Shown piece after piece: positions 81 through 60,160 of a stretch of 64,000 nucleotides of DNA; the stretch's first letter is position 1, and each line of letters opens with the position of its first letter. This stretch comes from Datisca glomerata. Its lineage: Eukaryota; Streptophyta; Magnoliopsida; Cucurbitales; Datiscaceae. Made by a program: the position numbers and the translations under genes. Location: NCBI GenBank assembly GCA_003255025.1, contig QANY01003934.1:1302001-1366000 (forward strand). Reading direction: 5' to 3'. The notes beneath the pieces are model-generated. The model was not told where the DNA came from. It ran no database searches and saw only the letters and a program-made list of their open reading frames with translations.

Positions 81-1560
81 GTGCCGTTGGATTACCTCTT
101 AGATCTCACCCAAAATTTCTTGAAGGAGGATAAGGGCATGACTCTTTATGCTCTGTGTATTTATGGCACCGTGTTATTTCCAAAGATCCAAGGTTATATG
201 GATGATAAAGTGATAAAATTTTTCATTCAAGTCGAACATGGTGTTAACCCTGTTATCTCAATTCTCACTGAGACTATCAGTTCTTTGAATCCATCCGTGT
301 TTGGGAAAGGAAAGTTCATCGGCTCTTCAACTCTTTTATGTATTTGGATTCTCCGCTAGATTTCAAATGTCCTCAAGTTAAGTTCTCAAGTTCATGGATG
401 AAGACGAGGATCCCTATTGCAGAATTTGGAATGGCCAAATGGAACCCGTAGTTTCCTTCAAAAGGTACTTGGCTCTCATACCTATCCAAGTTGAAAAATG
501 AAGATGTTATTTGAAAAGCCCATTGGATGCCGTTAACACCAATGATCTACAGATGTGGTGATTTTCAATGGGTTCCGCTCCCGAGATCATGGAGTTGTAC
601 TATTTATGCTCTGCGAATGGCACTCCGTCAATTATACATGAGATAGTTTGTCCCCACCACGCATGCATTGAAGGATATTGAAGTTAGTTACGATTCTCAA
701 GAAATTGAACAAAAGCTGCAGCAGCTGATTGGAGCTTAGAAAATAACAAGAAGGATACGAAATGAGAAGAATCGCATGAACTGCACAAAGGAGTATGAAG
801 CATGGCTTGAGAGTAGAAACAAAGTAATTATTGCCTTACCAGTTGAGGATGTACCATCAGCCAAATCACTGGAAGCTCATCAAAAGATTGCTAAAAAGGA
901 GGAGCTAGATGAATTATAAGAGGAGCGGCAAAAAGTTCTAGCCCTCTTGGAAGAAAACAGACGACTAGCAGTCGAGGCGAATTTGTCTGAGAAACACAGA
1001 ATCGAAGCTGAAGAACGACTCAAAGAGTTGAGAAATAAGATTGAGGATCAGGCATATCTGAAGTGAAAAAACTCAGAGTTGGGAACTGGCACTCGCCAAT
1101 TGAGCAACAAAATTAGAAAAATGGCAGAAGACAATGAGAACTTGTGAGGGGTAATCTACGAACAAGAAGATCAAATCATGAAGTTAGAGAGGAAAAATAA
1201 ACTGGTACGAGAAATTTTAGAAGAGGTGAAGGGAACTATTGATAAGAAAAATGCGTACATCGTCGAGTTAGAAGAGCAATATGACGCATTACGACGAATC
1301 GTTGATAATTTGCAGGTTGATTTAGATAATCAAAAAGTTAAGAAGACTGAGTCAACAAATGATTCTGAAGAATTTTTGAAAGTCATCGCAAGCCTTGAGT
1401 ATAAGGTGATAGAACAACTTAATCGCTTACTTGCTCGCATATCTTTACTGTCACTCTTTCTGAATTCTGAACCACATCGCCAAGCATTATTGAAGATTTT
1501 GAATCAAGCATATGTCTGTCATGACATTACGGTGGAGAAGTTGAGTGGAATTATGGACCG
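81..1560 (+). pseudogene. Ogre ORF1 (DUF7745-like domain plus coiled coil), degenerate
   Basis: The reading frame from 81 to about 357 translates to a stretch with LYALCIYGTVLFPK, VNPVISILTE and GKGKFIGSSTLL, which matches the pattern of the plant retrotransposon ORF1 domain known as DUF7745. From about 700 to 1560 the surviving frames are rich in E, K, L and Q with heptad-like spacing, as in the coiled-coil tail of Ogre ORF1. Several stops and frameshifts break it (for example the TAG at 357). The function of ORF1 in Ogre elements is not established. The tail runs almost directly into the protease, so the gag region expected between them is missing. Confidence 0.7.
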
Positions 1561-1562
1561 CA

Positions 1563-2222
1563 CCAAATTTTATCACTTTCACAGATGATGAAATCACTGT
1601 CGATGGTACCGGACACACCAGAGCTCTACATATATCCGTGAAATGTGGGGATTATGTTGTCGCAAAAGTATTGATTGATAATGGATCGTCTCTAAATGTA
1701 ATGCCAAGATCCACACTAGCAAAGCTCCTTGTGGACGCAACATATATGCGACCGAGCATGATGATAGTAAGAGCATTCGATAATACCCGAAGAGAAGTAG
1801 TCGGAGACAGAGAGATACAAATTCGAATCGGGCCATGCCTATTCAATATTATTTTTCAAGTGATGGACATAAATCCAGCATACCATTTTCTTTTAGGTCG
1901 ACCATGGATTCACTCTGCCGGGGTAGTACCGTCTCCATTACATCAGAAGCTGAAATTTATAATGGATCATAAACTCATTTGTATATATAGGGAAGAATAT
2001 TTACTGGTATCTAAGCTGGCTACCGTGCCGTATGTTGAGGTGGTAGAAGAAGCATTGAAGTGCTCATTTCGATCATTTGAGATTGCGAACACTACATTTA
2101 TTGCTAGTGGGAAACTCACTCCAACATCAAGCTTATCAAAAACATCTCAGATGGTGGCAAAGTTGATGATAAAAGGGGATACAAGCCAGGCAAAAGACTT
2201 GGGGCTAAGCATCAAGGCATAA
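1563..2222 (+). pseudogene. Gypsy aspartic protease domain (Tat/Ogre)
   Basis: An open frame carries FTDDEITVDGTGH followed by ALHISVKCGDY and the catalytic loop VLIDNGSSLNVM, then LLGRPWIHSAG. These are the hallmarks of the retropepsin domain of Tat elements, where D-[ST/N]-G holds the catalytic aspartate. Such proteases cleave the Gag-Pol precursor in the virus-like particle. The frame is open to 2222, then a second short frame (2236-2436) continues Tat-type linker sequence before the intron-like gap. The upstream gag, with its zinc knuckle, is absent, which points to an internal deletion near 1550. Confidence 0.8.
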
Positions 2223-2600
2223 ATAAGTTAATCGAGTGGACAAGAATGAACAAAGGTTTGAGCTTGGATATAGCCCGACCAAGGCTGATAGAAGGAGAGT
2301 GGAAGCTCAAAAGAAAGAAAAGAGGATTGCTAGGCTCGAAAATAGGGAATTCGATATGGAAATGACGATCATACCCCATATTTCTAAATCCTTTAGAAGT
2401 AGGAGAATTTCATTCGAAGAACTGGTTATATTATAGCAGTACAACCTTGAAGATGATATCGCCGAGCTTTCAATATCCACAATCTTGGGAAAATCATCAA
2501 GTGCAAGTACAGAGGACTTGGTTTCTCGATACGATTTGGATCATGAACTTAACAATTGGGACCTCACCAAGCTACCAGTGCTTCTCGACAATTTTCAAGA

Positions 2601-2811
2601 GTAATGTGTTCATGCCAAAATTTTAATGATTCTACCCAATGCCTTAGGAATTTCATTGTTATGGGCCTATGTTCTCGTCTATTTCATGTCATCTATTTCT
2701 TTTTTTTCTTCCTTTTATGTCTACATTTTCCATTTCTAAAATGTTGTTCATACTTATGCATTGTTTATTTATTTTTTTCTCGCATTCTTTTCATCCAATA
2801 ATCCGATTCAG
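2601..2811 (+). other. Probable Ogre intron between protease and reverse transcriptase
   Basis: The stretch is strongly T-rich, interrupts coding similarity and ends in a classic acceptor (polypyrimidine run then CAG at 2809-2811). The RT-side reading frame resumes directly at 2812. Ogre elements are known to carry a spliced intron at this place. The acceptor is clear. The donor is not: several GT dinucleotides near 2600-2612 are possible. Confidence 0.6.
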
Positions 2812-4640
2812 GTTCGAGAACGGTGATTTTGAAAACAAGAGCATAAGCAATAACTTTGACAATCCCATTCTTAGTGTACAGTCAGATGAAAGTGACAAGG
2901 ATAATTTCGAACCATCTTCGGAAGTGTTAAGAATGGCAGAGGAGGATGAAAAAATAACTCAACCATATCAAGAGTTAACGGAGATGATAAATTTAGGATT
3001 GGAGGGAGAGATGAAAAAGGTCCAAATCGGCACTTCTATGACAAGCCAAGGCCACCGAGAATTAATTGACTTACTCAAAGAGTTTATTGATGTCTTTGCA
3101 TGGTCTTACCAAGATATGCCAGGTCTAGACACTGATATCGTGGTTCATCATTTGTCACTTATGCCCGAAAGTAAACCAGTGCGACAAAAGTTACAAAAAA
3201 TGAAATCAGACATGCTGGTACATATCAATGAAGAAGTTAAAAAGTAAGTAGATGCGGGTTTTTTAGAAGTAGCAAAATACCCTGAATGGGTTGCTAACAT
3301 AGTCCCAGTGCTGAAGAAAAATGAGAAAGTAAGGTATTTAAATCGGGCAAGCCCTAAGGATAATTTTCCATTACCCCATATCGATGTCTTAGTAGATAAC
3401 ACTGCAAGACATTCAACATTCTCTTTCATGGATGGTTTTTCGGGGTATAACCAAATCAAAATGGATCCTGAAGACCGTGAAAAGATGACTTGTATAACTT
3501 TGTAGGGTACATTTTGTTATAAGGTCATGCCATTTGGTCTGAAGAATGCAGGGGCGACTTCAATGGTAACACTGTTTCATGATATGATGCATAAAAAAAT
3601 CGAAGTGTACGTTGATGATATGATCGCCAAATCTCGTCAAGGGAAGATCATACAGTCACTCTGCGAAAACTATTTGGACGGTTGAGAAAGTTCCAGTTAA
3701 AGCTTAACCCAACAAAGTGTACATTCACAACGTCTTCAGGGAAACTACTTGGTTTTGTCGTGAGCAAAGAAGGAATAAAAGTTGACCCTGACATGGTTCG
3801 AGCCATCATTGATATGCCGCCACCTCAAACTCAAAAGGAAGTTAGAGGTTTCTTGGAGAGATTAAATTACATAGCCCGGTTCATCTCACAGCTAACTACA
3901 ACTTGTGAAACTATCTTTAAACTTTTTCGCAAAAGTGATACAGAAGGATGGAATGATGATTGTCAAATTTCTTTTGAGAAGATCAAGCAATACTTGTTCC
4001 TCCAACTCTAGGGCGTCCACTCATTTTGTATCTTATAGTGACAGGAAAATCCATGAGTTGCGTACTTGGTCAACATGACGCCTCTGGAAGGAAAGAACAA
4101 GCAATATACTATTTAAGCAAAAGGTTCACAAATTATGAGGCTAGTTATTCGATGTTGGAGAAAACGTGTTGTGCATTAGCCTGGGTTGCTCATCGGCTTA
4201 GACACTACATGTTATACCACACCACTTGGTTAATTTCAAAGATGGATCTAATCAAATATATCTTTGAAAAGCCATCACTTTCTGGGTGAATCGTTAAAGG
4301 GCAAATGTTGCTCACGGAATATCATATTGTTTATGTCACGAGAAAATCAATAAAAGGAAGTGTACTTGCTGATTATCTTGCAGATCAACCAGTGCAATAT
4401 TATGAGCCTATGAAGTTTGATTTTCGTGATGAGAACATATCAATCATATTTAAAAATGAAGGAGAATCTATGGATCCAAAATTGTGGACAATGTTATTTG
4501 ATGGTGCGTCTAATGATGTAGATACGGAAGCTTCGAGTGTACGGAGATTCGTTATTGGTGATACGACAACTAAACGGGGAATGGAAGCTAGAGACTCCAA
4601 GTTGGTACCTTACAACAAACATGTAACTAAGCTAAGCTGA
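2812..4640 (+). pseudogene. Reverse transcriptase and RNase H (Tat/Ogre), stop-broken
   Basis: After the acceptor the frame reads through an acidic linker, then RT motifs: DAGFLEVAKYPEWVANIV, a PLPHIDVLVD block, FMDGFSGYNQIKM, the palm motif VYVDDMIAKSR near 3606-3640, and the LGFVVSKEGI and PPPQTQKEVRGFLERLNYIARFI thumb region to about 3895. RNase H similarity follows (AIYYLSKRF, YEASYSMLEKTCCALAWVAHRLRHYM; later DGASN). In-frame stops at about 3244, 3505, 4009 and 4287 make it non-functional. The intact YVDD and RNase H landmarks still place it in the Tat clade. Confidence 0.88.
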
Positions 4641-4649
4641 ACTTTTGAA

Positions 4650-6071
4650 GTGATTTCATTTGACCATATATCCAGAGAGAATAATCAAATTGTAGATGCA
4701 CTGGCAACTCTAGCATCCATGCTCACCGCAGACTTTAAGGAAGAAGTGCAACCCATAAAAATTGAGAAGCGAGATTTTTCTGCTCACTGTATGAGCATTG
4801 AAGAAGAGCCAGACACAAGACCGTGGTATTACGACATCAAGCAATATATAAAGAATGGAGAATATCCATCCAAAGCTTCTGAGAATGATAAACGCACTAT
4901 TAGAAGATTATCCATGGGTTTCTTCTTGAATTGTGAAATACTCTACAAAAGAAACCATGATATGGTGCTCTTAAGATGTGTTGATGCAAGGGAAGCGAAT
5001 CAAATCATAGAGGAAGTTCATGATGGAATTTGTGGAGTTCATGCTAATGGATATATGATGGCCAAACAAATCTTGAGAGTAGGATATTATTGGTTAACTC
5101 TAGAATCTGACTGCATCAAGTACGCTAGAAAATGTCATAAATGTCAAATTTATGCGGATAAAATTCATGTACACGCATCCCCTTTACATGTAATGGACGC
5201 GCCTTGGCCGTTCTCTATATGGGGCATAGACGTCATTGGTCCCATCACACCCAAAGCCTCTAACGGGCATCATTTCATTTTGGTATCTATAGATTATTTT
5301 ACCAAATGGGTGGAGGCAAGTTCTTATTCGAGTATAACCAGAAGTGCGGTTGTTAAGTTTATTAAAAAGGAGATAATTTATCGATATGGTCTACCTAGAA
5401 GGATCATCACAGATAATGGGATAAATTTAAATAATAAGATGATGAAAGAATTATGTAAGCAATTCAAAATTGAGCATCACGATTCATCTCATTATTGTTC
5501 GAAAATGAACGGAGCAGTGGAAGCAGCCAATAAGAACATAAAAATGATCATAGAGAAGATGATGGAGGTTTATAAAGATTGGCATGAGATGCTCCCGTTT
5601 GCACTGTATGGGTACCGCACATCAATCCGAACACCAACTGGGGCAATGCCATTCTCTTTGGTATATGGCATGGAAGCGGTCCTTCCAATTAAGGTGGAAA
5701 TTTCCTCTCTCAGAGTCTTAATGGAGGCGAAATTAGAAGAAGCAGAGTGGGTACAGACACGATATGAGTAGTTGAATTTCATCGAGGAAAAAAGATTGAC
5801 TGCATTAAGTAGAGGGCAATTATATCAAAGCAAAATGATGCACGCATTTGACAAAAAATTACGTCCCCGATGTTTTCGAGAAGGAGACTTGGTATTAAAA
5901 AAGATACTCCCATATCGAAAGGATCACCGAGGGAAGTGGACCCCAAATTATGAAGGTCCTTTCATTGTCAAGAAGGCTTTCTCGGGAGGAGCTCTCATGC
6001 TAACAAATATGGATGGAGAGGATTTACCGCACATGCTTAATTCTGATGCAGTCAAGAAGTACTTCGTTTGA
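4650..6071 (+). pseudogene. Gypsy integrase (Tat/Ogre), one in-frame stop
   Basis: The 373-residue open frame holds the HHCC zinc-binding region (VHDGICGVH ... KCHKCQIY), then the core with WGIDVIGPI (first D), RIITDNGIN (second D) and MNGAVEAANK (E), the DDE triad that joins retroelement DNA to the chromosome. A TAG at 5769-5771 splits off the C-terminal part, which continues in the same region to 6071 with RCFREGDLVLKKILP and GKWTPNYEGPF, the GPY-like tail. No chromodomain is seen, as usual for Tat elements. This is the best preserved part of the element. Confidence 0.9.
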
Positions 6072-13998: not shown

Positions 13999-16900
13999 CT
14001 AAAACGAAGGAAATTTTATCATTGGCTTACATCCATGACCAGACTTCATCTTGAACCATGGGCAACTAGTGAGTCTCAATCCCGATTTTTCCACACAGAA
14101 CCAAATCTCGTAGAGTTGATGATCACCATCCGTATTCTTATTGCAATAAATAATTGGAGCGTGCCCAATTTTATTGCTTACAACTCTTGTTATTTGGTCT
14201 ATTTCGTATAGATTGTCGTCTGGCCTGATTCCTGCAATGTTTTCTCAGAGTCAGTACGTATGGTAACAATCATTATTGAAAGCATATTAAGTAGCGTATA
14301 CATATATTTATGTTCAGTATTTTCTTGAGAACAAATATTTTTCATACATTAATTAAAGACTAGTATAAGAAATTGTAGTGCAGTGTACTACAGGAAATCA
14401 TAATGCAATATGAAGAATTCAAGAACTCAATTTTGTCTGGGTTATTAATGAGATTTGTGAATCTAGAATATATCATATCATAACAATATACGTAAACAGA
14501 TATCCAATTTGTATAACTGGAACTTGATCGCAAATTTTAAAGTCGAAGGTACAAAACTGCAGAAGAAGAATAACGGGTTTGATTACAACAACAGAAAAAA
14601 AATTAAGTCGATGGACCTTTTCAAAAACTAGCCTATAAATTATAAAAATTTATCACCAAGTGTTATTATAACATCTATGTTAAGCTCATGAATACAATAA
14701 TCCGAATTGATCATAATTAATTATGGTTGAAAATATTTACCTGCAACTTCGAGATTTTGAAGAAGTTTTATTTTAATTTTGAGGTCGAGAGCAGTCTTAA
14801 AGTATGCATACTGATCAAAATTAGAGCAAGTTCCAAATTTTGCCCAATTAGCCGACCAATTGGTTACACCATCATTGCTAGGGCAATCTAGTGATGGCCA
14901 ATGATCCACTAAACTGTCAGTTAGGTTAAATACCTATTACAAAGATAGGGTTAAGAATTATATGATTGAAATAATTGAGAAAATTTCTTGTTTATAAAAA
15001 ATACACAAAAATAGAATGTGTCAAAACGTCAGAATGTCTTAAAACATATGCTTCCGTCTACATAGACAAACCCTTTGTTTCTTCTTGGCGTGAGACCGTG
15101 TCCCAGATTGATGAACAGTGGGAATGACCTATGTTATAAATTTGGACAATATCTCCATTGGTACGAGACACTTTGGGTAGAGTTTGAAAGTAAAATAGTG
15201 TGGGCCTAGGCACAAAGCGCATAATATCATATTAATTACGTGTGGTACATTATCCCTACAAGTAGTATCAGAGCTATGATCAAGAGTTAGCCATGTGAAT
15301 GAAATCCACCAAAACCCAGTTGACTCCTGATAGATCTATGTTTTAGCTTAAAGTAGGTGGTGGTGCTCCAGTGCTTCAGGTAAGACGTGTCTCTCAATGC
15401 AATGGAGAGGAGTTGACCTGGATAGAACAAACTCTCAAGGATGATGGTGCTCTAGTGCTTCACTGAAGGCGTGTGGCCCAACGCAGTGAAGATGAGTTGG
15501 CCTCGATGTAAGGGGGATTCTTTCTAGTGTTATTTATTTTAGCAAGAATCCAACATTTCATCCGAGACCGAAGCATATTGATGCGAGATATCACTGGATA
15601 CGTGATAAATTAAATGAGAAGCAGTTCAAATTCAGAAAATCCATAATATGATAACGGGTTAGACATAATTACCAAAACTTTACCTAATTTCGGCTATGAT
15701 GTTTTGGACATTTAATGGCCCATCGGCAAGGGTTTTCACTCTATTTTCAAGTCATTCTCCTAATACATTCTTAGAAGAACACATTCTTGCTACCTAGTTG
15801 ACAACATATCTTGTTCTTATTGTCTCGATAATTTGAGGGTGTATCCATGGATTTATTGTGCTAATTTCTCAGCCATCTCTACAATTGTGATTTGATTACC
15901 CATTTATGTAGCGAGATTTATTTTAGTGTAACTTTAATTATTGGGGAGATAGATTAGTTATTAGAATCGGTGTAGTACCTCTAGTTTTATCAAGAGAAGT
16001 ACTTGTTGTAACTGGCCTATTACATTTATAATGGAAGATATTGCTATGAGTTTGTCTCGTCGATTTATGAGTTGAGACTTTCTCTCACACATATAAACTG
16101 ACCACCAGTTCCTTCCACAATCGATGTGAGATAACTCTGATAGTCTCTCCCGTCACATATCGGATCCAAAGTCGAATAACCATCGACTCGCTCTACCCAG
16201 ATTCACCATATATCAGGCCATCAGTCGAATGACCGTCGACTCGTTTTGTTCAGATTCAGCCCATGAGATGAATTACCGTGACTCGCTTCACCCAGATTAA
16301 CCAAGCATTAGGTCGTGAGTCAGAAATCCACCACTCACTTCACCTGAGTTTGGGCTGGAGACTCGTTGACTAAATCTGGACCTGACTGTAATACAAGTAT
16401 TGTCTAATATGAGGTTTTCTCAACCCCTCAAGCTAGCTTTCGGGTTTGTAAAGACTCAATACCACCCAATAGTGTTTAACTTGCACAGATAGTCTCTCTA
16501 GTTTCATTGTGATCAAATACACACATTCATTGTACATTTTTCCAAAATTCCCTATATTGCCCCTTGTTTTAGAAATTATACTAATAGATTATTATTTATC
16601 ATATTACTAATGTTTTGAAAGTGACCTCAGACTTTAATGGTTCTCTTGAAAAAACGATTGGTTTCTTAAGGATGAATATAATATCAAGCTTATTTTTACT
16701 ATAGATGACATTTTTAGGTGGTAAGACTATTACTTTTCAATAGAGTACTAATAATAACTAATTGGTTCTCTGTTTATACAAAAAAACAAAAAAAAAAGGT
16801 TATGGGTAGGGAAAGTACCTCAATTAAACTGAAAACGCTATTAGGATTACAATCGGTAGGATTTTCTCCATAATGACTCATAGGTTGAAATTTACTAATG

Positions 16901-17975
16901 ATAAAATCAGTTTTGGGTTTTCCTGTGAGGGGGTAGCAACAGTCTTCGGTTGTATTGGGACGTGACCCGGGCCACTATAATGAAAAACAAATTTTCATTT
17001 AACTAGTCAGTACATACCGTATTATATGTGTAAATGAATTTATTATATTTATAATTATAATTATTATTTATTTTTTATGTTGTGTTTATGTAATTTTAAA
17101 AAAATATTTAACACCATTTATATTTTGAATTTATATGAGTAAGATAAAAAAAATGTTATATTGATGTTATTTACTGATATATTATTATTCAACCAAGCTG
17201 TGTCACATGTATATTTTTAGAAAAATAAATAGAATATAGTAAAATGTGCTCTCAAAATTTAAAAGAAAAAGTGACGTCATTAGAATTAAATGATCCATTT
17301 CATGTTTTATTTTTTAACTTTTTAACTTTTCATTTATATTGTAAATTTTATTCGTAAATTTTGGGTAACTATATTTATGTAACATATTCATTACACTAAC
17401 ATATAAAATATAGCATAAACGAAGTTTCTTAATGTGTGTTATAGTTGAATTATATTTTAAATTCTATTATTTATGTTTTATAGAGATAATTTACTTTTAC
17501 TCTATATTAAAAAATATTTAGTACAAAGTTGAGTTTTCGCTATATAACTTCTCAATGATTTGCTACAATTCATTCAAATTATCAATTAAAATTAACTTAA
17601 AATTATATATTAATTAGTTTTTTTAATTCATTAAATGGATGAACAGATTTTGAAATTAATGCATACTTGATCACTTTTTTATAATTTTAAAAATAACAAA
17701 TTATTAAATTTTATAAATAACTTATAAGATTATTTTGGGTAATGTATAAATAATAGGTGAACAAAATTATTCAAAAGTGATTCTTATCCCCTCTCCACTT
17801 TTAATACATTATAGATATAGATTAATATTTAGTGACATAACAGGATCAATAAGAAAATTAATTGATCACAACGTACCTGTAGGCTGAAGTAAAAGGAATC
17901 AAAGTTCCCAAGACAATCTCTTATAAGACGATGTATGATCAGCAGTTGAATTAAAACCAAAAGGCCAGATTTCAT
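13999..17975 (-). CDS. Secreted T2 ribonuclease / S-RNase-like protein, catalytic residues lost (226 aa, 4 exons)
   Basis: Exons on the minus strand are 17975-17877, 16974-16819, 14933-14741 and 14231-13999. All introns are GT-AG, and the total of 681 nt gives 226 residues and a TAG. Residues 1-21 form a signal peptide (LLVLIQLLII core). The mature part has the T2 landmarks FDSFYFSLQWPGS, DCCYP, HWPSLDC, FGTCSNF, PIIYCN, EIWFCVEKSG and the closing IKFP, with the usual cysteines. Active-site block I (normally IHGLWP) reads ISKFQP, so the catalytic His is Ser60. Block II (normally HEWxKHGTC) reads ANWAKFGTC, with Ala113, Asn114 and Phe118 in place of His, Glu and His. RNA cleavage is therefore unlikely. 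N40-T-T and N88-L-T are possible glycosylation sites. The length fits class III (S-RNase) proteins. The role is unknown; binding of RNA, sugar or a partner protein is inference. Confidence 0.9.
15100..15530 (+). mobile_element. TRIM/copia LTR remnant within intron 2 of the RNase-like gene
   Basis: A sequence starting near GTGTCCCAGATTGATGAACAG leads to TAGTATCAGAGCT at 15263-15275, an initiator-Met tRNA primer site. Downstream, two diverged 83-bp units start at about 15361 and 15444 (GGTGCTC-AGTGCTTCA). They are followed by a tract GTAAGGGGGAT that looks like a polypurine tract. The order LTR, primer site, short internal part and purine tract fits a TRIM. A full 3' LTR was not made out. It lies inside the intron and does not touch an exon. 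Confidence 0.55.
16155..16335 (+). repeat. Diverged tandem repeats in intron 2 of the RNase-like gene
   Basis: The phrase CGA-TGACCGTCGACTCG followed by CAGATTCA or CAGATTAACC recurs about three times at roughly 60-bp spacing (near 16178, 16230 and 16277). No coding function was seen. It may be old retroelement debris in the intron. Confidence 0.5.
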
Positions 17976-39913: not shown

Positions 39914-40147
39914 TGTTGAATAAACATTAAATGTTATTTTTAGTGGATTTTAAATTTAAGAATTAAAAAACATAAAATGTCAAAAAATTTTGTAGATAAA
40001 AAGTCAAGAGGTGATAGATTTAATTATTTTTCAGTTTTTTTTTGGAAGAGTAGAGTCTATATAAAGGCCTTGGTGATTTCATTTGAAAATAGAACTAAGA
40101 GAAATACAAAAGTTAAAGTATTACAAGTGAGTTTATTTGAGTTCTCA
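39914..40147 (+). repeat. 5' LTR of the copia element
   Basis: It starts TGTTGAATAAAC and ends GAGTTCTCA. TATATAAA at 40058-40065 is a clear TATA box for element transcription. Confidence 0.88.
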
Positions 40148-40164
40148 AATTTGTATCAGAGCCA
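40148..40164 (+). promoter_or_regulatory. Primer-binding site (initiator-Met tRNA)
   Basis: TTGTATCAGAGCCA lies just after the LTR and matches the plant initiator-Met primer site TGGTATCAGAGCCA except for one base. The gag ATG follows at 40165. Confidence 0.8.
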
Positions 40165-41115
40165 ATGACGAATGTGACGGGTCAAATGCCGCTACCACGA
40201 CTAACGAAGGCGAACTACGAGAACTGGAGCATTCAAAGGAAAGCTCTTCTCGGCTCTCAAGATGCATGGGAGGTGGTCGAAGAAGGGTTCGAAGAACCAA
40301 CAAATACCACGGGATATACGGCGGCTCAAAACAAGACTTTGAAAGAGGCGCGAGCGAAGGATAAGACGGCATTATACATGTTGTTCCGAGCCGTTGATGA
40401 GTCGGGCTTTGAGAAGATTGCCGGTGCAACTACTTCAAAAGAAGCGTGGGACATTTTAGGAAAAGTGTTCAAAGGAGCCGACCGAGTCAAGCAAGTGCGT
40501 CTCCAAACTCTTCGTGGCGAGTTGGAGAGCATGAAGATGAAGGAGTCGGAAAGTGTATCTGACTACATCACGCGTGTACAAGCCGTGGTGAACCAACTCA
40601 TTCGTAATGGCGAAGCGTTAACCGATGCCCGAGTTGTGGAGAAGATTTTGAGATCATTAACCGACAATTTTGAGAATGTTGTGTGCGCAATAGAAGAGTC
40701 AAAGGACCTTGCGACGCTCACAGTCGACGAGCTTGCCGGTCTCTCGAGGCACACGAACAACGTAAGAAGAAAAAAAAGGAGGAGACACACGAGCAAGCAA
40801 TTCAAACCAAGGCGTCAATCAAAGACGAAAAGGTATTCTATTCTCAAAATTTCTGAGGTAGAGGGCGTGGCCGTGGAAGAGGACGGGGTCGAGGAAGAGG
40901 CGGTCGGTCGAACTATTCCAACATCGAGTGCTACAAGTGTTACAAGTATGGTCACTATGCGAAGGATTGCAACTCCGACAAATGTTATAATTGTGGTAAC
41001 ATGGGGCATTTTGCAAAAGATTGTCGAGCTGATAAAAAGGTGAAAGAAACAACCAACCTAGTCTTGGAAGACGAAGCGAATGAAGGCCTTCTCTTGATGG
41101 CTCAAAATGAAGTCA
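40165..41115 (+). pseudogene. Copia gag with two zinc knuckles, one frameshift
   Basis: The ATG at 40165 gives MTNVTGQMPLPRLTKANYEN, a typical copia Gag start, then ALLGSQDAWEVVEEGFEEP and KEAWDILGKVFKGADRVKQV. Near 40745 the frame shifts. In the correct frame there follow an [12 protein letters not shown] run at about 40855-40905 and two CCHC knuckles, [14 protein letters not shown] and [14 protein letters not shown] (about 40930-41025). These bind element RNA in the particle. Two knuckles are more than most copia Gags carry. Confidence 0.9.
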
Positions 41116-42328
41116 ACATCAACAATCACACTCTGTGGTACCTCAACTCGGGGGCAAGCAACCATATGTGCGGTCACGAGTACCTATTCAAAGAGATGCA
41201 AATGATTGAAGATGGTCATGTGTCATTTGGAGATGCATCAAAGGTGGAGGTCAAAGGCCGAGGTATGGTTTGTTACTTACAAAAGAATGGCTTAATAGGG
41301 TCAATCCAAGATGTTTATTATGTACCGGACCTCAAGACCAACATTTTAAGTATGGGGCAACTCACAGAGAAAGGTTACTCGATACTTTTAAAAGGCCGAG
41401 TACTACACTTGAAGGACAAGCAAGGGCGTCTGGTTGCTCTAGTCGAGATGGGAAGAAATCGGATGTACAAACTGAATTGAGAAGCGTGTGAGAAAAATGT
41501 TTGCGAGTCAACGTAGAAGACAAGGCGTCGTTGTGGCATCTCCGCTTTGGTCACCTACATCAAGGTGGTCTAAAAGAGTTAGCAAAGAAGAACATGGTGC
41601 ACGGGCTGCCGGACATGGACTATGAGGGCAAATTTTGTGAAGAATGTGTGCTTGGCAATAAACATACTCTCGAGTTGATTCATACCGACATATGTGGACC
41701 AATCACCCCTGAATCTTTCAGTGGTAAAAGGTACTTCATTACCTTTATCGATGATTTCTCACGAAAAACTTGGGTTTATTTTCTGAAAGAAAAATCCGAG
41801 GCATTCGAGGTGTTCAAAAAGTTCAAAGTGATGGTGGAGAAGGCAGCTGGTAGACACATCAAAGTCGTACGATCCGATAGAGGTGGCGAGTATACTTCAA
41901 CGACTTTCATGGAATATTGCGAGGAGCAAGGCATAAGGAGATTTCTAACCACATCATACTCTCCTCAACAAAACGGTGTGGCAGAGAGGAAGAACCGGAC
42001 TATTCTCGACATGGTTCGATCAATGCTCAAGAGCAAGAAGCTGCCGAAAGCATTCTGGGCAGAAGCTGGGCAATGTTCCATCTATGTACAAAATCGATGT
42101 CCACATGTGAAGTTAGATGATCAAACACCACAAGAGGCATGGAGCGGACAAAAGCTGACAGTTTCTCATTTCAAAGTGTTTGGTAGTGTGGCTTATGCAC
42201 ACATACTGGATCAACGAAGAATGAAGCTCGAAGACAAAAGCAAAAGGTATATTTTTATTGGGTATGATGAGAAGACAAGGGTACAAACTACTCGACCTGA
42301 TAAGCAAGAAGGTGATGGTGAGTCGTGA
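41070..42328 (+). pseudogene. Copia protease and integrase, broken
   Basis: The protease loop reads [13 protein letters not shown]. The family has WxxDSGAS here, so the catalytic Asp is replaced by Asn. A TGA at 41478-41480 ends that frame. From 41501 the integrase shows its zinc-binding part (LWHLRFGHLHQGGL ... CEECVLGNKH), then the DDE residues in LIHTDICGPI, VVRSDRGGEYTS and NGVAERKNRT. After about 42240 the frame shifts and the C-terminal region is lost. Integrase would insert the DNA copy into a chromosome. Confidence 0.9.
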
Positions 42329-42489
42329 TGTGCGAGTAAATGAAGCAAACGAGTGGGACTGGAACAATTCGATGGAGGTTATCATCGAAGTTGGAGAATC
42401 ATCAGTCGTTGCACCAACAAGTATACCAACAAACTCTGAAACTACCGATGATGAAGATGAACCACGAAAACCAAAAATGTGAAGTTTAC

Positions 42490-43583
42490 AAGATTTGTAT
42501 GACTCAACAAATGAGGTACACCTAGTATGTCTTTTAGCAGATGTTGAACATATCAGCTTTGAAGAGGCGATGCGAGACAAGAAGTGGCAAACTGCCATGA
42601 ACGAGGAGATTAAGGCGATTGACCACAACAACACTTGGGAGCTAGCAGAATTGCCGAAAGGCAGTCAGCCTATTAGTGTAAAGTGGGTGTTCAAGAAAAA
42701 GATGAATGCTCAAAGCGAGATAGAATGGTACAAGGTGAGACTTGTTGCAAAGGGATACAAGCAAAAGATAGGAATCGACTATGACGAGGTGTTTGCTCTT
42801 GTTGCAAGAATGGAGACAATCCGATTACTCATTTCACAAGCTGCTCAATTCAAATGGCCAATATTTCAAATGGATGTCAAGTCAGCATTCTTGAATGGTG
42901 TGCTCGAAGAATATGTCTACATCGAACAACCACCCGAGTACATGAAAGTCGGAGAAGAGAAGAAGGTGCTAAAATTGAAGAAGGCGTTTTACGGGTTGAA
43001 GCAAGCACCGCGGGCATGAAATACACGTATCGATACATATTTCAAGGAGAACGGGTTCAAGCAATGTCCCTACGAGCATGTCCTTTACGCAAAGAAGAAT
43101 GGAGGTAACGTGTTATTTGTTGCTCTTTATGTCGATGACCTCATTTTTATGGGAAACAATGATGAGATGATAGAAGAGTTTAAGGGTACAATGACACGAG
43201 AATTTGAGATGATAGATTTAGGCTTGATGAAGTTTTTCCTTGGTTTGGAGGCTAGGCAAGTAGAGACAGGTATTTTTGTATCACAGGAGACATATGCAAA
43301 AGAGATTTTAAAGAAGTACAAGATGGCAAATTGCAACCCGGTATCAACACCAATGGAACCAGGTGCAAAACTCCCAAAGTTCGATGGAGGAGAACGTGTT
43401 GATGCGAGTAGATACCGAAGTTTGGTAGGAAGCCTTCGCTATCTCACATGCACAAGGCCGGATCTTTCATTAAGTGTCGGTATTATAAGTCGGTTCATGG
43501 AGGAGCCGGTTTATTCACATTGGAAGGCGATGAAGCGAATCCTACGGTACATCCAAGGAACGGTGTCACTCGGGTTGTTCTAA
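42490..43583 (+). pseudogene. Copia reverse transcriptase, broken
   Basis: The frame from 42495 holds EEAMRDKKWQTAMNEEIKAI, VKWVFKKKMNAQSEIEWYK, VRLVAKGYKQKIGIDYDEVF, the palm motif FQMDVKSAFLNGVLEEYVYI and LKKAFYGLKQAPRA. A one-base slip near 43015 moves the end into another frame. From 43110 VALYVDDLIFMGNN gives the YVDD box, followed by FFLGLEARQ and LVGSLRYLTCTRPDL. Confidence 0.92.
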
Positions 43584-43601
43584 TCGAAAGCAGAAGATTA
43601 T

Positions 43602-44081
43602 ATGTTGGTCGGTTACTCCGACAGCGATGGGTGCGGAGACATAGACGATCAGAAAAGTACATCAGGATATGTGTTCTTTATGGGAGATACTGCATTTACT
43701 TGGCTTTCCAAGAAGCAACCAATCGTGATGCTCTCGACGTGTGAAGCTGAATATGTGGCAGCATCTTGGTGTGTATGTCATGCGATATGGCTTAGAAATT
43801 TGTTGAGCAAGATGGAGCTACAGCAACTAGCTGCAACCGTGATTCAAGTTGACAACAAATCAGCAATTGAGTTGGCAAAGAATCTAGTGAACCATGAAAG
43901 AAGCAAACACATTGACGTTCGTTTTCACTTTATCCGAGACCATGTGAAAGAAGGAAGTGTGGAATTGGTGCATGTGGCAAGTCAGGATCAAGTTGCGGAT
44001 ATCTTCACAAAACCACTACCGAAAGTACTTCTCGACAAATGCAAGAAAATAATTGGCATGACGGATGGTAGAAGCATTTAA
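43602..44081 (+). pseudogene. Copia RNase H, open frame
   Basis: The 159-residue frame carries GYSDSDGCGDIDDQKSTSGY, AFTWLSKKQPIVMLSTCEAE, VIQVDNKSAIELAKN, HIDVRFHFIRDHV and ADIFTKPLP. It is a nearly full-length copia RNase H with the D-E-D residues visible. It degrades the RNA strand during reverse transcription. It is out of frame with the upstream RT. Confidence 0.92.
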
Positions 44082-48959: not shown

Positions 48960-49807
48960 CTCAGCCTCCATTTGTACCGGCGTTTTTGTACTAGGTCCTC
49001 TTATGTTTTTTCAGAAACTCTCCTTTTGTACGGAATTGTACTGAAGAACCCAAGTTGGCAAGGGCATCTGCTCTTGAATTTTTTATCCTCGGTATATGTG
49101 TAACTTCGTAGTTTTTAAACAGTTGTAGAATTTCCTTCATACATTGCAAATATTCCAGCATTCTGGTATCTTTGGCATTGTATTTTCCTGAAACTTGGTT
49201 AGCAATTAACATCAAATCACAAAAAAAATTTAACATTTGTTACCCTTAATTCGTTTACCAGATGAAGTCCGGCTAGTAGTGCTTCATATTCTACCTCGTT
49301 GTTAGACGCTTTAAAACTGAAGGATAACGCTTGCTTGGAAGTTTCACCATGTGGAGCCTAGATGACAACTCCCGCTCCCGCTCCCTGATGATTGGAAGCT
49401 CCGTCAACATATAAGGTCCAAGCTTCTTTTTTGGGCTCTTCCGTCGCCGAGATAGGTTACGCGTCATCATAGCTAAATTCGGCAATGAAATATGCTAGAA
49501 CTTGTTCCTTGATTGGAGTTCGTGGAACATCGCAGATATCCTATCCTCCAAGTTCACCTACCCATTTCACGAGCCTTCTAATCATCTCCAGGGAATGTAA
49601 ATGTCTCATTATTGGGAGTTCCATCACTACATTGATCGTACGTGCTTGAAAATAATGTCTCAATTTTTTGGCATCTACGATTAAAGCTAGCACTAGCTTC
49701 TCCATCTTCTTGTATCTTGTTTCTGCAGCTACAAGGCTTTTATTGACAAAGTAGACTGGTTTATGTTGTCCACTGTCAAATCTGACTATTGTCGCACTGA
49801 CTGCCAC
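48960..49807 (-). pseudogene. Gypsy RNase H regions (RT-linked and additional archaeal-type)
   Basis: 49807-49541 gives KPVYFVNKSLVAAETRYKKM and ALIVDAKKLRHYFQ, the RNase H fused to gypsy RT. 49485-48991 gives pieces such as GPYMLTELPI (decayed DG motif), SNNEVEYEALLAGL in the frame near 49300, and LIANQVSGKYNAKD with THIPRIKNSRADALANLGS. This is the second, archaeal-type RNase H that Tat elements carry. It removes RNA during replication. All pieces are broken. Confidence 0.8.
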
Positions 49808-49849
49808 TTCTAAAATTGCTAGATATAGAAAAAACTCTTCATCTAGTAA

Positions 49850-50700
49850 CGGTTTGGACAGTAGTGGGGGAGACGCTAGATATTGCTTGAGTTTTTGTAG
49901 TGCATCTTTACATTCATCATCCCATTGCTGACCACAATTCTTCCTTAACTTTGTGAAAAATGGCCTACACTACATTTACGTGTTGATCTTGCCAAAAACT
50001 TATTCAATGTATCCATTTTCCTGTTCAACTTTGAATTTCTCTTTTCATTCGTAGTAACTTAATTTCCATGATTACCTTGACTTGGTCTAGGTTGACTTCA
50101 ATCCCCATGTGATTGATGAGATGTCCCAGGAGCTTTCCCCCTGCCACTCTAAAGGTGCATTTTTCTGGATTGAGCTTTATATTGCTTTTCCTCAAGGCTT
50201 GAAATGTTTCCTTCAAATTATGGATATGATCCATCCTCCTCTCGTTCATCCACGTACACTTCCATCGTTCTTCCGATATGATTTTCAAAGATCTTAATAA
50301 CCCATCTCTGATATGTTACCCCTGCATTTTTAAACCAAAAGGTAAATATGCCAAAATCAGTGATAAAATATGTCTTTTCTTAATCAGGTTGGAATATTTT
50401 TACCCAACTGTACCCCAAGTATGCGTCCATGAAGCTGAGGAGTTTGTACCCCCTATCTCGTCCACCATCTAGTCAATCCTTGGTAACGGGTAGTCATCTT
50501 TTGGGTAAGCTTTAGTTAAATCGGTGAAGTCCACATAAATTCTCCACTTCCCATTCTTCTTTTTAATCATCACTACATTTACCAGCCATTTTGGGTAGTT
50601 GACTTCTCTGATGAACCTGGCATCGAGCAATTTTTCCACTTCTTCCTTAATAGCTTCTTTTCTTTTGGCTGCAAAATTATGTCTTTCTATTTTACATGTT
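49850..50700 (-). pseudogene. Gypsy reverse transcriptase (Tat), broken
   Basis: On the minus strand 50700-50500 gives EAIKEEVEKLLDARFIREVN, YPKWLVNVVMIKKKNGKWRI and YVDFTDL. Further pieces include the LRKSNIKLNPEKCTFRVAGG and LLGHLINHMGIEVN thumb region at about 50200-50080. The palm YVDD motif was not recovered because of frame breaks near 50250. Confidence 0.8.
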
Positions 50701-54801: not shown

Positions 54802-57133
54802 CTAAAAGGTAGGGAAATTAATAGTTTCTCCACACTTTTTTCTTGACATTTTGATCTTGTGTTCAGGGCATCTGGTAAGATTTAAACCAGATTTTTCAAC
54901 GCAAAAGTGAATCTCATGGAGTTGCGTGTATCCATATGTGTCTTCATTGCAATAAATTATTGGAGTTAACCCAACTGCTTTGATTATGACTCTCCTGATA
55001 CTTTCATAATTGTAAGACTTTCCATTTGGTCTAATCCCTGCAACATTAATTGGTCCACATATGTTATTTTTCAGGCCATATATGTTAATTAAAAAGTTGG
55101 TTCAAAGGAATCAAATGTTTGAAATGATTAGGGGTCCATAGGAATCAAATGTTTGCAACCAATCAAGATTATGAAAGAAACTGTTGCAATGAATCAACAT
55201 TACGAAAGAAATTGCTGCATAAAACTATGATGTTAATTACCCCTGTAAGTTCGCAGTATTATGGTCACACATTACATGTGATAAATAAGTAAATAAGAAA
55301 AAATAAATCTTTACTAAAGACATAAATTTAGTCTATCATTATGTATGTTACTATGTCATAAAACGGTACTCTTATCACATTGCTCATTGTGAAAAGTATA
55401 AGATGAGAATAAAATTTACGATGTACCTTCGCTAATAAGAATATCGAGAAGATTCAATCTATTTTTCAGATTAAGAGTCATTTGAATGTATACTTCTTGT
55501 TCAAAGTTAGAACAAGTCCCGAACTTTTTCCAATTGTACGCGCAATTCATCGTTATACTCTTTGTAGGGCAAAGTAGGACGGGCCAATGCTCAATCAATT
55601 CTCTCATGAGATGTAGGATCTAAAAAATGAGGGAAAAGTAAGAATCTTAAATAATTTTCTCGTGACATGAATTTCTTAATTTTATCCTAGTACTCGAAAT
55701 ATAACTTTGCACTAACTCAAAGATAATAAAATGGAGTTACTGCCTGTTATTCGTGTTGAACAATCGACATGGTTGTATATCACAAAAATACAATATCAAA
55801 GTGAGAATAAATGAATTATGAAGATCATAAATACATCTCTGACAAATATAATTGGCAACTACATATAACAAGTTGGGGGCGAAGCATAGACAATCAAATT
55901 GTACAATAAAATGACAGTGAAACATTTTATTGCCCAACTTTTTATGAGGTTATATGAAATTAGAAGACTATAACAAAACATCTTACCAGTTTCACAAGGC
56001 TAGATATGTATATATAAGCATATTCAATCAAGTAATAATCAAACAATTTACTCACCAAAGTAGTTCCTACTGGTATTGCGAAGCTTGTTTATAAAGATTT
56101 GAATGTGTCCCCTTAAATATAGATTTATATGGTGCTCTATTGGTTTTCATACTCAAGTTAACATCAACAGGAGTATATATGGACAACAATTACAAACTAC
56201 ATTCTCTCTTTTTTTCACCATAGGTTTTTCAATAGGGTTTTCTTGCAATGTTTTAGTGAGCAAGTCTGATATATTTTTTTACATAAATACAAGAATAATG
56301 TATCTTTTTTCACTAGAAAGTTTTCTTAGTAAGATTTTAACGAGACATATTCTGTGAACGTTGAGGGGAAGTTTTATAAATGAACGAGTTATGGATACCC
56401 AATATTCTAAATCTGGCCATTAATATAAGTGAAATGAATAGAATCATATACATGTTGTAAGTTAGGTTATGTTGAGTCGTTCTTAGTTCATTTAATCTTA
56501 CCCTTAATATTGTCTATAAATTGAGCTAACAAATATGAATAAGATAGGTCATAAATGGATTCTCTTATTTTTTTTGTGTTCTGCGTCTTTCTACTTTATG
56601 TTTTGATATATACATTCAAACATTTCTTTCAATGATCAAAATTATATATAACAAAGATATTTTATTTAATTTAAGTAAGTTTTGATGTTGGAAGAATCTA
56701 AAGATCTCCATTAAAAAATTTCTCTTAAACTTAATTAATGTATATCCCAATAAAATCAAGTTGGCTTCACAATTACCTTAAACTTGTTGAAAGGGTCATC
56801 AGTACAGTGCACGGGATTCCTATGACCGAATTGGATAGGTTGAAACTTATTAATGATAAAATCTGATTTTGGCTTTCCGCTTGTCGGATAACAACAACCT
56901 AATTTTGTATTACATTCGGAGCCTGGCCACTATATCAGAGGAAAATAAGATCAATTAGTTTGTCTTCATTTGAATCATTTGACAGAATAAAAGAATCATT
57001 ACAGAAAACATTCATTCACCCATTTTACCTGCTGGCTAAAATAGAAGAAATCAAAATCAGTATGGCAATAGCCAAGGTGAAATTGAAATACTAAAAGTAG
57101 CTGAATTAAATTTACAAAGCCAGTCTTCCTCAT
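54802..57133 (-). CDS. Second secreted T2 ribonuclease / S-RNase-like protein, catalytic residues lost (228 aa, 4 exons)
   Basis: Exons on the minus strand are 57133-57029, 56929-56777, 55619-55427 and 55037-54802. All junctions are GT-AG, and 687 nt give 228 residues plus a stop. The start follows a signal peptide pattern (LIQLLLVFQFHLGYC). Mature landmarks are FDFFYFSQQWPGSEC, GCCYP, HWPVLLC, FGTCSNF, PIIYCN, FCVEKSG and INFP at the end. Block I reads IINKFQP, so the catalytic His is Asn62. Block II reads YNWKKFGTC, with Tyr114, Asn115 and Phe119 for His, Glu and His. Exon 3 is 193 nt, exactly as in the paralog at 13999-17975, and intron phases agree. By eye about half of exon 4 residues are identical. 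A three-codon upstream ORF (57138 to 57124) overlaps the start as ATGA. N203-L-T is a possible glycosylation site. Confidence 0.9.
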
Positions 57134-58429: not shown

Positions 58430-60160
58430 TCGTGAGGTATCACACTGTCTCACGGTATTGTGATTCACGACACTATGTGCCTCATTGGCTCTTTAGAATT
58501 AGCTACCGCCTCACTATTGTCACAGTATATGATCAGTGGTTTGTTCATATCTGTAACTACTTTCATATCAGTATAAAACTTTCTGAGCCATACCGCTTCT
58601 TTCGTAGCTTGCCAAGCCGTTATATATTCGGATTCCACAGTGAAATCTGCAATGCTGGATTGTTTAATACTTATCTAAACTACAGCTCATCCACCTATGG
58701 TAAATACTAATCCTGACGATGATTTTTTACTGTCTCTATCTAATTGAAAATCAGAATCAGTATATTCAGTTGGGTTTAAGTCTTCACTTGAATAAACAAG
58801 TATATAATTTCTCATTCTTTTAAGCTACTTGAGAATGTGCTTTACTGCAATCTAATGTTCTAAACCATGATTTGATTGATAACGACTGTGATTTTCATCG
58901 TATAACAGATGTTTGGTCTCGTACACAACACGACATATTTGAGACTACCAATAACTAAAGTATAAGGAACCTTTCTCATATAATCTTCCTCCTCAGATAT
59001 CTTAGGACATTGCTCCTTAGAAAGGACAATTCCATGTCTGGCCAGTAGTTGACATTTTTTTAAATTCTCCATAGAGAATCTTTGTTGCACCTTATTTATA
59101 TAAGATTCCTGAGAAAGTGTCAAAAGCCTATTCTTTCTATCCCTTAGGATTTGGATGCCTAGAACATAGCTCGCCTTTATCAAATATTTCATTTGAAATT
59201 TCTCAGGTGACCACTTCTTTACCTTTGACAAAGTTTCTGCATCATTCTCAATGAGTAGAATATCATCAACATAAAGAACTAATAAAACCATTATCTTGTT
59301 TTTTATGTATTTATAAACACAAGTTTTGTCAACATTTTGCTCGAAACCATATGATTTAATAATCTTATAAAAGGTAAGATTCCAAAATATAGATGCTTGC
59401 TTTAATCCTTAAATAGATTTAAGCAACTTGCACATTTTCTGATCTTTCCCCTATTTCATGAACCCTTCTGGTTGTATTATATAGATGCTTTCTTCAAAGA
59501 GCCATTCAGAAAAGATGCCTTGATGTTCATTTGCCATATTTTATAGTGTAAACTAGCGGCAATGGACAAAATGATGCAAATGAATTTTAGTATGGCAACA
59601 GGAGAGAATGTATCTTCATAATCGACTTATTCCCTTTGTATATAGCCATTGGCTACTAGTCGTGCCTTAAATGTCTCTACTTTCTCATTTGCACATCTTT
59701 TCTTCTTGAAGATTCATTTACATCCAATGGACTTGACATTTTCAGGTGGATCTACAAGTTTCCAGATGGAATTAGAATACATCGATTCCATTTCCTAGTT
59801 CATGACATCTTACCATTTCTCCTTTTTAGGATCTTTTGTCACATTTTTAAAGGTTAATGGATCCTTTTTATCAGTTTCAGACACTAGGACATGTGCCTTA
59901 AGTTCATAGCAAATAGGTTATCTTATAACCTTCCCTCTACGACATTGCACTGGGTTTTCTGAACAAGAACAGTGGTTTCTGTGGTTTGTCGTTTATCAAT
60001 TGATGATGAAGGTGGTATGATCTCATCAAACTCTCACTATGAGAAATATGATATTTTACAAGCGGCAGATATCCCCGTAAAAAGTAATTCACATGGATCA
60101 TACAGCGCCTGTGACAACCATTCATATTAAAAGTCCGCATTTTTTCGAGACGTAACACCT
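58430..60160 (-). pseudogene. Copia pol fragment (RT and RNase H), decayed
   Basis: The open frame 59291-58860 reads VLLVLYVDDILLIENDAETL, with the YVDD palm motif, then YVLGIQILRDRKNRLLTLSQ and SLKYVVLCTRPNICYTM. Downstream on the minus strand to about 58450 is RNase H-like sequence (a STTEAEY-like region near 58630 and SDRDSKKS near 58720). Upstream pieces to 60158 fit the RT N-terminus. The branch looks different from the element at 39914-44329. Stops are frequent, and no LTR pair was found. Confidence 0.8.

What the first reader, a model, noticed from the sequence alone, without database searches (positions are those of the whole stretch)
54802..57133. Paralog 37 kb away shares the same loss of both active-site blocks
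The second gene (228 residues, also intact) reads IINKFQP and YNWKKFGTC. The KFQP motif, the Glu-to-Asn change and the final His-to-Phe change are common to both copies, while the other positions differ (Ser/Asn, Ala/Tyr). So the catalytic site was lost before the duplication, and both copies have stayed open since. This points to an established pseudo-RNase family and not to one decaying gene.
Basis: partly seen in the sequence, partly recalled or inferred. Interest (0 to 1): 0.9.

Follow-up and report, generated by a model that had tools for sequence, protein, structure and literature searches.

The report
A plant's large non-cutting RNase family
This gene belongs to a large plant family of relatives of an RNA-cutting enzyme in which the cutting residues are mostly gone although selection has kept many of the genes intact, so the proteins likely do a job other than cutting RNA.

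Summary
A four-exon minus-strand gene (57133-54802) encodes a 228-residue T2-RNase protein reading INKFQP and YNWKKFGTC; its paralog (17975-13999) reads ISKFQP and ANWAKFGTC. Both lack the four catalytic residues examined. The family is far larger than a pair. Of 32 full-length class I T2 models from this genome, two keep the whole active site; of the other 30, 24 are complete, and 19 of those lack one or both catalytic histidines. Selection holds them: nine open genes that all lack the second catalytic His give dN/dS 0.28 (2dlnL 231 against 1). The CAS II loss is older than the split of the two copies. A shared CAS I loss is not shown: the nearest relative of this copy keeps that His, the column changes often, and the copies are not sisters. 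KFQP occurs in these two alone of 30. Inactive class I clades are already known in grasses and Caryophyllales; the scale here is the unusual part. Function is untested. I favour a secreted binding protein, narrowly, over a storage protein.

The parts
57029..57133 (-). copy 2, exon 1: hydrophobic N-terminus (probable signal peptide) to ..FDFFYFSQQ
   Evidence: Met start, donor CAG|GTAAAA, phase 0
56777..56929 (-). copy 2, exon 2 with CAS I block
   Evidence: acceptor TAG|TGG, donor AAG|GTAATT, phase 0
56837..56857 (-). copy 2, CAS I block IINKFQP (xIHGLWP in the genes with the full site): catalytic His to Asn (AAT), Trp to Gln
   Evidence: sequence; aligned columns, codons
55427..55619 (-). copy 2, exon 3 with CAS II block
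55512..55538 (-). copy 2, CAS II block YNWKKFGTC (HEWxKHGTC in the genes with the full site): His to Tyr, Glu to Asn, second catalytic His to Phe; Lys, Trp, Gly, Thr, Cys kept
54802..55037 (-). copy 2, exon 4 and stop codon
   Evidence: phase 1 intron, stop 54804-54802
17877..17975 (-). copy 1 (paralog), exon 1
16819..16974 (-). copy 1, exon 2; CAS I block IISKFQP at 16902-16882; first mature Cys replaced by Pro
14741..14933 (-). copy 1, exon 3; CAS II block ANWAKFGTC at 14852-14826
13999..14231 (-). copy 1, exon 4 and stop codon

Best explanation
This is an intact class I T2-RNase gene with a predicted secretion signal that has lost its catalytic residues and belongs to a large family whose members stay under purifying selection, so its protein is predicted not to cut RNA and would likely work by binding. 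Shown: complete four-exon frames; the ten cysteines of the fold kept in nearly all members (all ten in this copy) while catalytic columns vary; CAS II altered before the two window copies split; dN/dS about 0.3 in a clade whose members all lack the second catalytic His; basic calculated pI in 29 of 30 family members, this copy included (8.83), against 4.81 in the two genes with the full active site; nine class I genes or pieces along 330 kb of this contig, beginning with those two genes. Inferred: no RNase activity; secretion; growth of the family from that array. Mechanism I commit to, at about 0.35 against its rivals: a disulphide-locked, mostly basic RNase fold in the cell wall space or vacuole that still binds RNA or another acidic ligand and competes with the plant's active class I RNases.
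For: Gene models and homology. Of 32 full-length class I models, 2 keep the full active site (L002, L003). Of the 30 others, all without the Glu, 25 lack one or both catalytic His, 12 lack both, and 9 lack all four residues, the two window copies among them. 24 of the 30 are complete from Met to stop. Selection (fits made, read in 51, tested in 52): 9 open genes of the 12-row clade in which every member lacks the second catalytic His give omega 0.28, 2dlnL 231 against omega 1; 5 genes around copy 2 give 0.311, 2dlnL 89; 27 open Glu-less genes give 0.326, 2dlnL 498 (this set includes five that keep both catalytic His). Copy 2 against L009: NG86 dN 0.24, dS 0.77. A copy 2 frame under substitutions alone and no constraint stayed open in 54 of 5000 runs at 0.2 substitutions per site, 8 of 5000 at 0.385, 0 of 5000 at 0.77. 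Each of the ten mature Cys is kept in 27 to 30 rows. pI. Decoy precedent: passages of PMC9545236 say that overexpressed catalytically dead Arabidopsis RNS1 pushed cell death in nahG plants below the vector control, which its authors ascribe to competitive exclusion of the native enzyme from substrates.
Against: No expression, protein or activity data could be had; L002 and L003 too are called active by their residues alone. The paralog in this window is acidic (pI 5.94) and has lost one mature Cys (Pro). Five of the 30 Glu-less rows keep both catalytic His, and a solved S-RNase (SF11, 1ioo) has Gln at the Glu column and Tyr at the third-His column, so Glu loss alone does not prove inactivity. 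The columns of the two catalytic His and the Glu are only middling in variability (53rd to 68th percentile of 199), unlike the third His (95th). Dead RNS1 did not complement the mutant in the same paper. The decoy step has no test here. Side-chain nitrogen per residue also rises (0.279 and 0.318 in L002 and L003, 0.312-0.470 in the 30 others; 0.358 in NGR3), which fits storage as well.
Confidence: 0.75

Rival explanations
1. A vegetative or root storage protein: a stable, nitrogen-rich RNase fold without activity, kept in many copies for dosage.
For: Two dead plant T2 proteins that were studied are called storage proteins: CalsepRRP, and ginseng GMP, which has no activity although it keeps its catalytic His (PMC5598434). 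Induction of inactive OsRNS4 in Zn-poor rice was read the same way (PMC5520845, passages). Side-chain nitrogen per residue is above that of L002 and L003 in 29 of 30 rows.
Against: CalsepRRP is class II in PMC5598434 and scores only 57.4 and 67.1 bits against 185 for RNase NW. Members are strongly diverged (window copies 49% identical) and fall into several subclades, which dosage alone does not ask for.
Confidence: 0.3
2. Genes in decay: recent pseudogenes that happen to be open still.
For: 18 of the 50 class I models are fragments or broken and 2 further full-length ones carry frameshifts, so decay does go on around them, also in the same array (L073, L053, L028). Copy 1 has lost one mature Cys. 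Constraint is looser than between L002 and L003 (NG86 0.08, dS near saturation).
Against: omega 0.28-0.353 with 2dlnL 59.8-497.7 against 1 in five sets; 24 complete genes; neutral frames rarely stay open.
Confidence: 0.05
3. A weakly active or re-specialised RNase: some members still cleave, slowly or on special substrates.
For: L007, L042, L043, L044 and L050 keep both catalytic His and Lys. Solved S-RNases lack the third His: S3-RNase has Lys, SF11 has Tyr, and SF11 has Gln for Glu (that these are active enzymes is recalled).
Against: The two window copies lack both catalytic His, so this can hold for other members, hardly for them.
Confidence: 0.1
4. A defence or recognition repertoire: secreted, mostly basic proteins that act on microbes or in pollen-pistil recognition, without catalysis.
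For: Several runs of linked genes, many diverged paralogs, hydrophobic N-termini, basic charge.
Against: Diversifying selection at single sites was not looked for; overall omega is low. Functional S-RNases of self-incompatibility are class III, not class I (PMC5598434).
Confidence: 0.2

Closest known systems
Class I S-like RNases: RNase NW (1iyb), RNase LE (1dix), NGR3 (1vcz), Arabidopsis RNS1
   Same: Sequence family; three introns as in the commonest class I pattern; ten mature cysteines in copy 2; the tree sets NW and NGR3 with L002 and L003 of this genome (94/77)
   Different: Window copies lack both catalytic His, the third His, the Glu and the Trp of HGLWP
Inactive class I homologs of grasses (37-sequence clade; OsRNS4) and a 14-sequence Caryophyllales clade (PMC5598434, sections 14, 15 and 20 read, other passages seen; PMC5520845, passages seen)
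   Same: Class I, lack one or both catalytic His; a basic shift with the loss is reported there too
   Different: Here at least 19 complete His-less genes sit in one genome beside 2 with the full site; whether they descend from either clade could not be tested
CalsepRRP (1jy5), storage protein of Calystegia rhizomes
   Same: T2 fold without activity
   Different: Class II in PMC5598434, one His replaced (PMC5520845 passage); weak sequence match (57.4 and 67.1 bits)
Ginseng main protein GMP
   Same: T2-like protein without RNase activity
   Different: Placed in class III and keeps the catalytic His (PMC5598434)

Membership tests
Plant class I T2 (S-like) RNase family, by descent | T2 domain (PF00445) above the curated cut-off | tested here: met
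   126.4 and 133.3 bits, cut-off 26
Plant class I T2 (S-like) RNase family, by descent | Three introns, the commonest class I pattern (I-D in PMC5598434) | tested here: met
   Three introns, phases 0, 0, 1, the same in L002 and L003; that they are positions 2, 5 and 9 of that paper is inferred
Plant class I T2 (S-like) RNase family, by descent | Closer to known class I enzymes than to other classes | tested here: met
   NW 185 bits against 57.4 and 67.1 for CalsepRRP and 33.6-42.2 for the S-RNases; the tree held two outgroup rows and no class III row
Active T2 RNase | CAS I His and second CAS II His present | tested here: not met
   Asn and Phe in copy 2, Ser and Phe in copy 1
Inactive class I T2 homologs (grass and Caryophyllales type) | Full-length class I gene lacking one or both catalytic His | tested here: met
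   Both window copies; 19 of 24 complete Glu-less genes
Inactive class I T2 homologs (grass and Caryophyllales type) | Basic isoelectric point | tested here: inconclusive
   Copy 2 pI 8.83 met; copy 1 pI 5.94 not met; 29 of 30 rows basic
Inactive class I T2 homologs (grass and Caryophyllales type) | Common descent with the published clades | not testable with these tools
   No plant sequence collection is held; the protein search with copy 1 scored none of 37 candidates
T2-type storage protein (CalsepRRP, GMP) | Abundant in a storage organ | not testable with these tools
   No expression or protein data
S-RNase of self-incompatibility | Class III, mostly with a single intron | tested here: not met
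   Three introns and only 33.6-42.2 bits to solved S-RNases against 185 to RNase NW; class III was not in the tree

The most novel reading that the evidence does not exclude
This plant has turned a secreted RNase into a repertoire of at least nineteen non-cutting binding proteins, grown out of a tandem array that starts with two active parents, and uses them as natural antagonists that occupy the targets of its own RNases.
Probability: 0.25. Interest if true: 0.78.

Novelty: new variant of a known kind. Interest (0 to 1): 0.52.

Why it matters
Dead copies of enzymes are often written off as pseudogenes. Here one genome holds a graded series from class I T2 genes with the full active site to genes without any of it, several steps of it along 330 kb, with a measurable signature of selection after the loss. 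That makes an open question testable: what plants do with T2 proteins that no longer cut. The published survey (PMC5598434, sections 14 and 20) lists 67 such class I sequences in nine clades and says of the Caryophyllales clade that virtually nothing is known about expression or function.

Tried and rejected
Rejected: KFQP as a family mark (2 of 30 rows). Rejected: the two copies as each other's closest kin (AU p 0.00087), the 7 His-less rows of the ten-row clade as one clade (p 9.7e-6), and all 19 rows without the CAS I His as one clade (p 2.9e-7). My own first reading that the Glu loss alone means a dead enzyme was dropped, where SF11 S-RNase has Gln there. My own first reading that the CAS I His was lost independently in the two copies was cut to unresolved after favoured loss with regain (the root was set to 'kept' in that fit). 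A possible new salt bridge (Tyr to Arg with Ala to Asp/Glu, together in 19 of 30 rows) did not pass the phylogenetic pair test and is left as a lead.

Led nowhere: the protein search among 5.8 billion sequences scored none of 37 candidates (only copy 1 was given). Naming the organism: the Rubisco and 5.8S rRNA searches did not complete; LigB gave two gene-like places that say little. Five paper searches listed no paper on this family in a named plant that I recognised; only open-licence papers are held and the species is unknown. The first omega script printed errors only; its log files were read and the tests run. Structure prediction was not asked for, since the spliced protein is not letter for letter in the window.

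Full report
The gene. On the minus strand, 57133 to 54802 is a four-exon gene with GT-AG introns of phase 0, 0 and 1. It encodes 228 residues with a hydrophobic N-terminus, all ten mature cysteines and a T2 RNase domain. Its closest solved structure by sequence is RNase NW, E 8.9e-54. Where the genes with the full site read IHGLWP and HEWxKHGTC, it reads INKFQP and YNWKKFGTC. The paralog at 17975 to 13999 reads ISKFQP and ANWAKFGTC and has Pro for its first mature Cys.

The source. That it is a plant is inferred from the class I T2 genes with their introns and from retrotransposon-like frames in the window; a two-intron T2 group recalls a pattern that PMC5598434 lists for some rosids. I could not name it further.

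The family. PF00445 gives 135 exon-level matches in the 678 Mb genome (150 of 207 candidates were scored, so this is a lower bound). The largest T2 count in a survey of 81 plant genomes was 28 genes (PMC9250077, section 5). I fetched stretches holding most class I places and built models with a spliced aligner. Three weak places, near C385:875 kb, C1288:948 kb and C690:126 kb, were not fetched, nor were all places of the other T2 groups. The 50 class I models divide as follows. Two keep the whole active site (L002, L003). Twenty-four others are complete from Met to stop. Four more are open over the domain but unsure at the 5' end, a splice site or the linkage of exons (L001, L017, L034 and the composite L010_11). 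Two are full length with frameshifts (L014, L018). Eighteen are fragments or broken. L012 is counted as complete with a shifted second intron, L049 with a longer C-terminus.

The active site. All 30 full-length rows other than L002 and L003 have replaced the Glu. Five of them keep both catalytic His, 13 keep one, 12 keep none. Nine lack all four residues, the window copies among them. Glu loss alone is not proof of inactivity: SF11 S-RNase has Gln there and S3-RNase has Lys at the third His (that these S-RNases are active is recalled). So I count as predicted inactive only the 25 of 30 rows (19 of the 24 complete ones) that lack a catalytic His.

History. A tree of 36 rows was built without the CAS columns. 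All 30 Glu-less rows form one clade (98/86) and the Glu changes once. Both window copies lie in a 12-row clade (95/92) in which every member lacks the second catalytic His, one loss. So CAS II was altered before the two copies split. The CAS I His is another matter: 9 changes on the tree, kept in L009 (sister of copy 2, 98/69), L017 and L025. A two-state model with regain fits better than loss alone (2dlnL 14.8), so the ancestor's state is open. The copies are not sisters (AU p 0.00087). The nearest full-length rows are L009 for copy 2 (63% identity) and L013 for copy 1 (60%).

Place. On this contig class I genes run over 330 kb: L002 and L003 with the full site first, then L035, L034, copy 1, copy 2, and then the broken L073, L053 and L028. 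In a 51-row tree with fragments, the members of this row other than L002 and L003 branch at successive depths of one lineage. This fits tandem growth followed by spread to other contigs. The order along the contig is not the branching order throughout: L028 lies at the far end but branches deepest, on 30% of the columns, and several of these forks are weak.

Selection. Within nine open genes of the 12-row clade, where all evolution follows the loss of the second catalytic His, omega is 0.28 and omega 1 is rejected with 2dlnL 231 (fits, read, tested). Five genes around copy 2 give 0.311 (2dlnL 89). Two other subclades give 0.306 and 0.353. Copy 2 against L009 gives NG86 dN 0.24, dS 0.77; among the closest Glu-less pairs printed the ratio runs from 0.31 to 0.52, and three pairs with L013 were saturated. 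A copy 2 frame under substitutions alone stayed open in 54 of 5000 runs at 0.2 per site, 8 of 5000 at 0.385 and 0 of 5000 at 0.77. The third-His column is more variable than 95% of 199 columns, the two catalytic His and the Glu lie at the 53rd to 68th percentile, and each mature cysteine is kept in 27 to 30 rows. Selection holds the fold more than the catalytic residues. Compared with L002 against L003 (NG86 0.08, dS near saturation) the constraint is looser.

Charge. L002 and L003 have a calculated pI of 4.81; 29 of 30 others have 7.66 to 9.31; copy 1 is the exception at 5.94. PMC5598434 reports basic shifts with catalytic loss in class I (section 20 and a passage of section 16).

Mechanism. 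Shown: intact genes, lost residues, selection, charge shift, linked genes. Inferred: no RNase activity and secretion. Most likely, in my judgement at about 0.35, the protein binds RNA or another acidic ligand and competes with active RNases; passages of PMC9545236 give a precedent with an artificially dead RNS1. Storage (0.3) and defence or recognition (0.2) are close behind. No call here separates them.

Known or new. Dead class I T2 proteins are known: a 37-sequence grass clade and a 14-sequence Caryophyllales clade (PMC5598434), and OsRNS4 (PMC5520845, passages seen). Unusual here are the number in one genome, the graded series and the estimate of selection after the loss.

Noticed in passing
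G000 contigs C774, C293, C841, C871, C888 and others; loci L005, L030-L033, L054-L061, L064-L072: A second T2 group, 22 models (10 of them with two introns of phases 0 and 1, others partial): third His replaced in 21 of 21 read, Glu kept in 17 of 21, CAS I His in 20 of 21, second catalytic His in 11 of 21. Probably class III by intron pattern; loss of the third His is also seen in solved S-RNases.
   Followed up: partly
aligned columns of NW Tyr17 and Ala80 (L003 residues 33 and 96): Tyr to Arg in 23 of 30 and Ala to Asp or Glu in 20 of 30 Glu-less rows, together in 19. That these line the base pocket is recalled, not tested; the phylogenetic pair test was not significant.
   Followed up: partly
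L007 (C610), L050 (C67), L042-L044 (C490): Glu-less class I genes that keep both catalytic His: halfway forms that may still cut RNA.
   Followed up: no
window 1545-5771, 40141-44081, 49541-49969, 58860-59408: Long open stretches that read like plant LTR-retrotransposon proteins by eye; described only.
   Followed up: no
L010 (C419:1005 kb) and L011 (C419:1016 kb): Exons 1-3 and exon 4 of one apparent family member lie about 10 kb apart, which would mean a very long third intron.
   Followed up: partly
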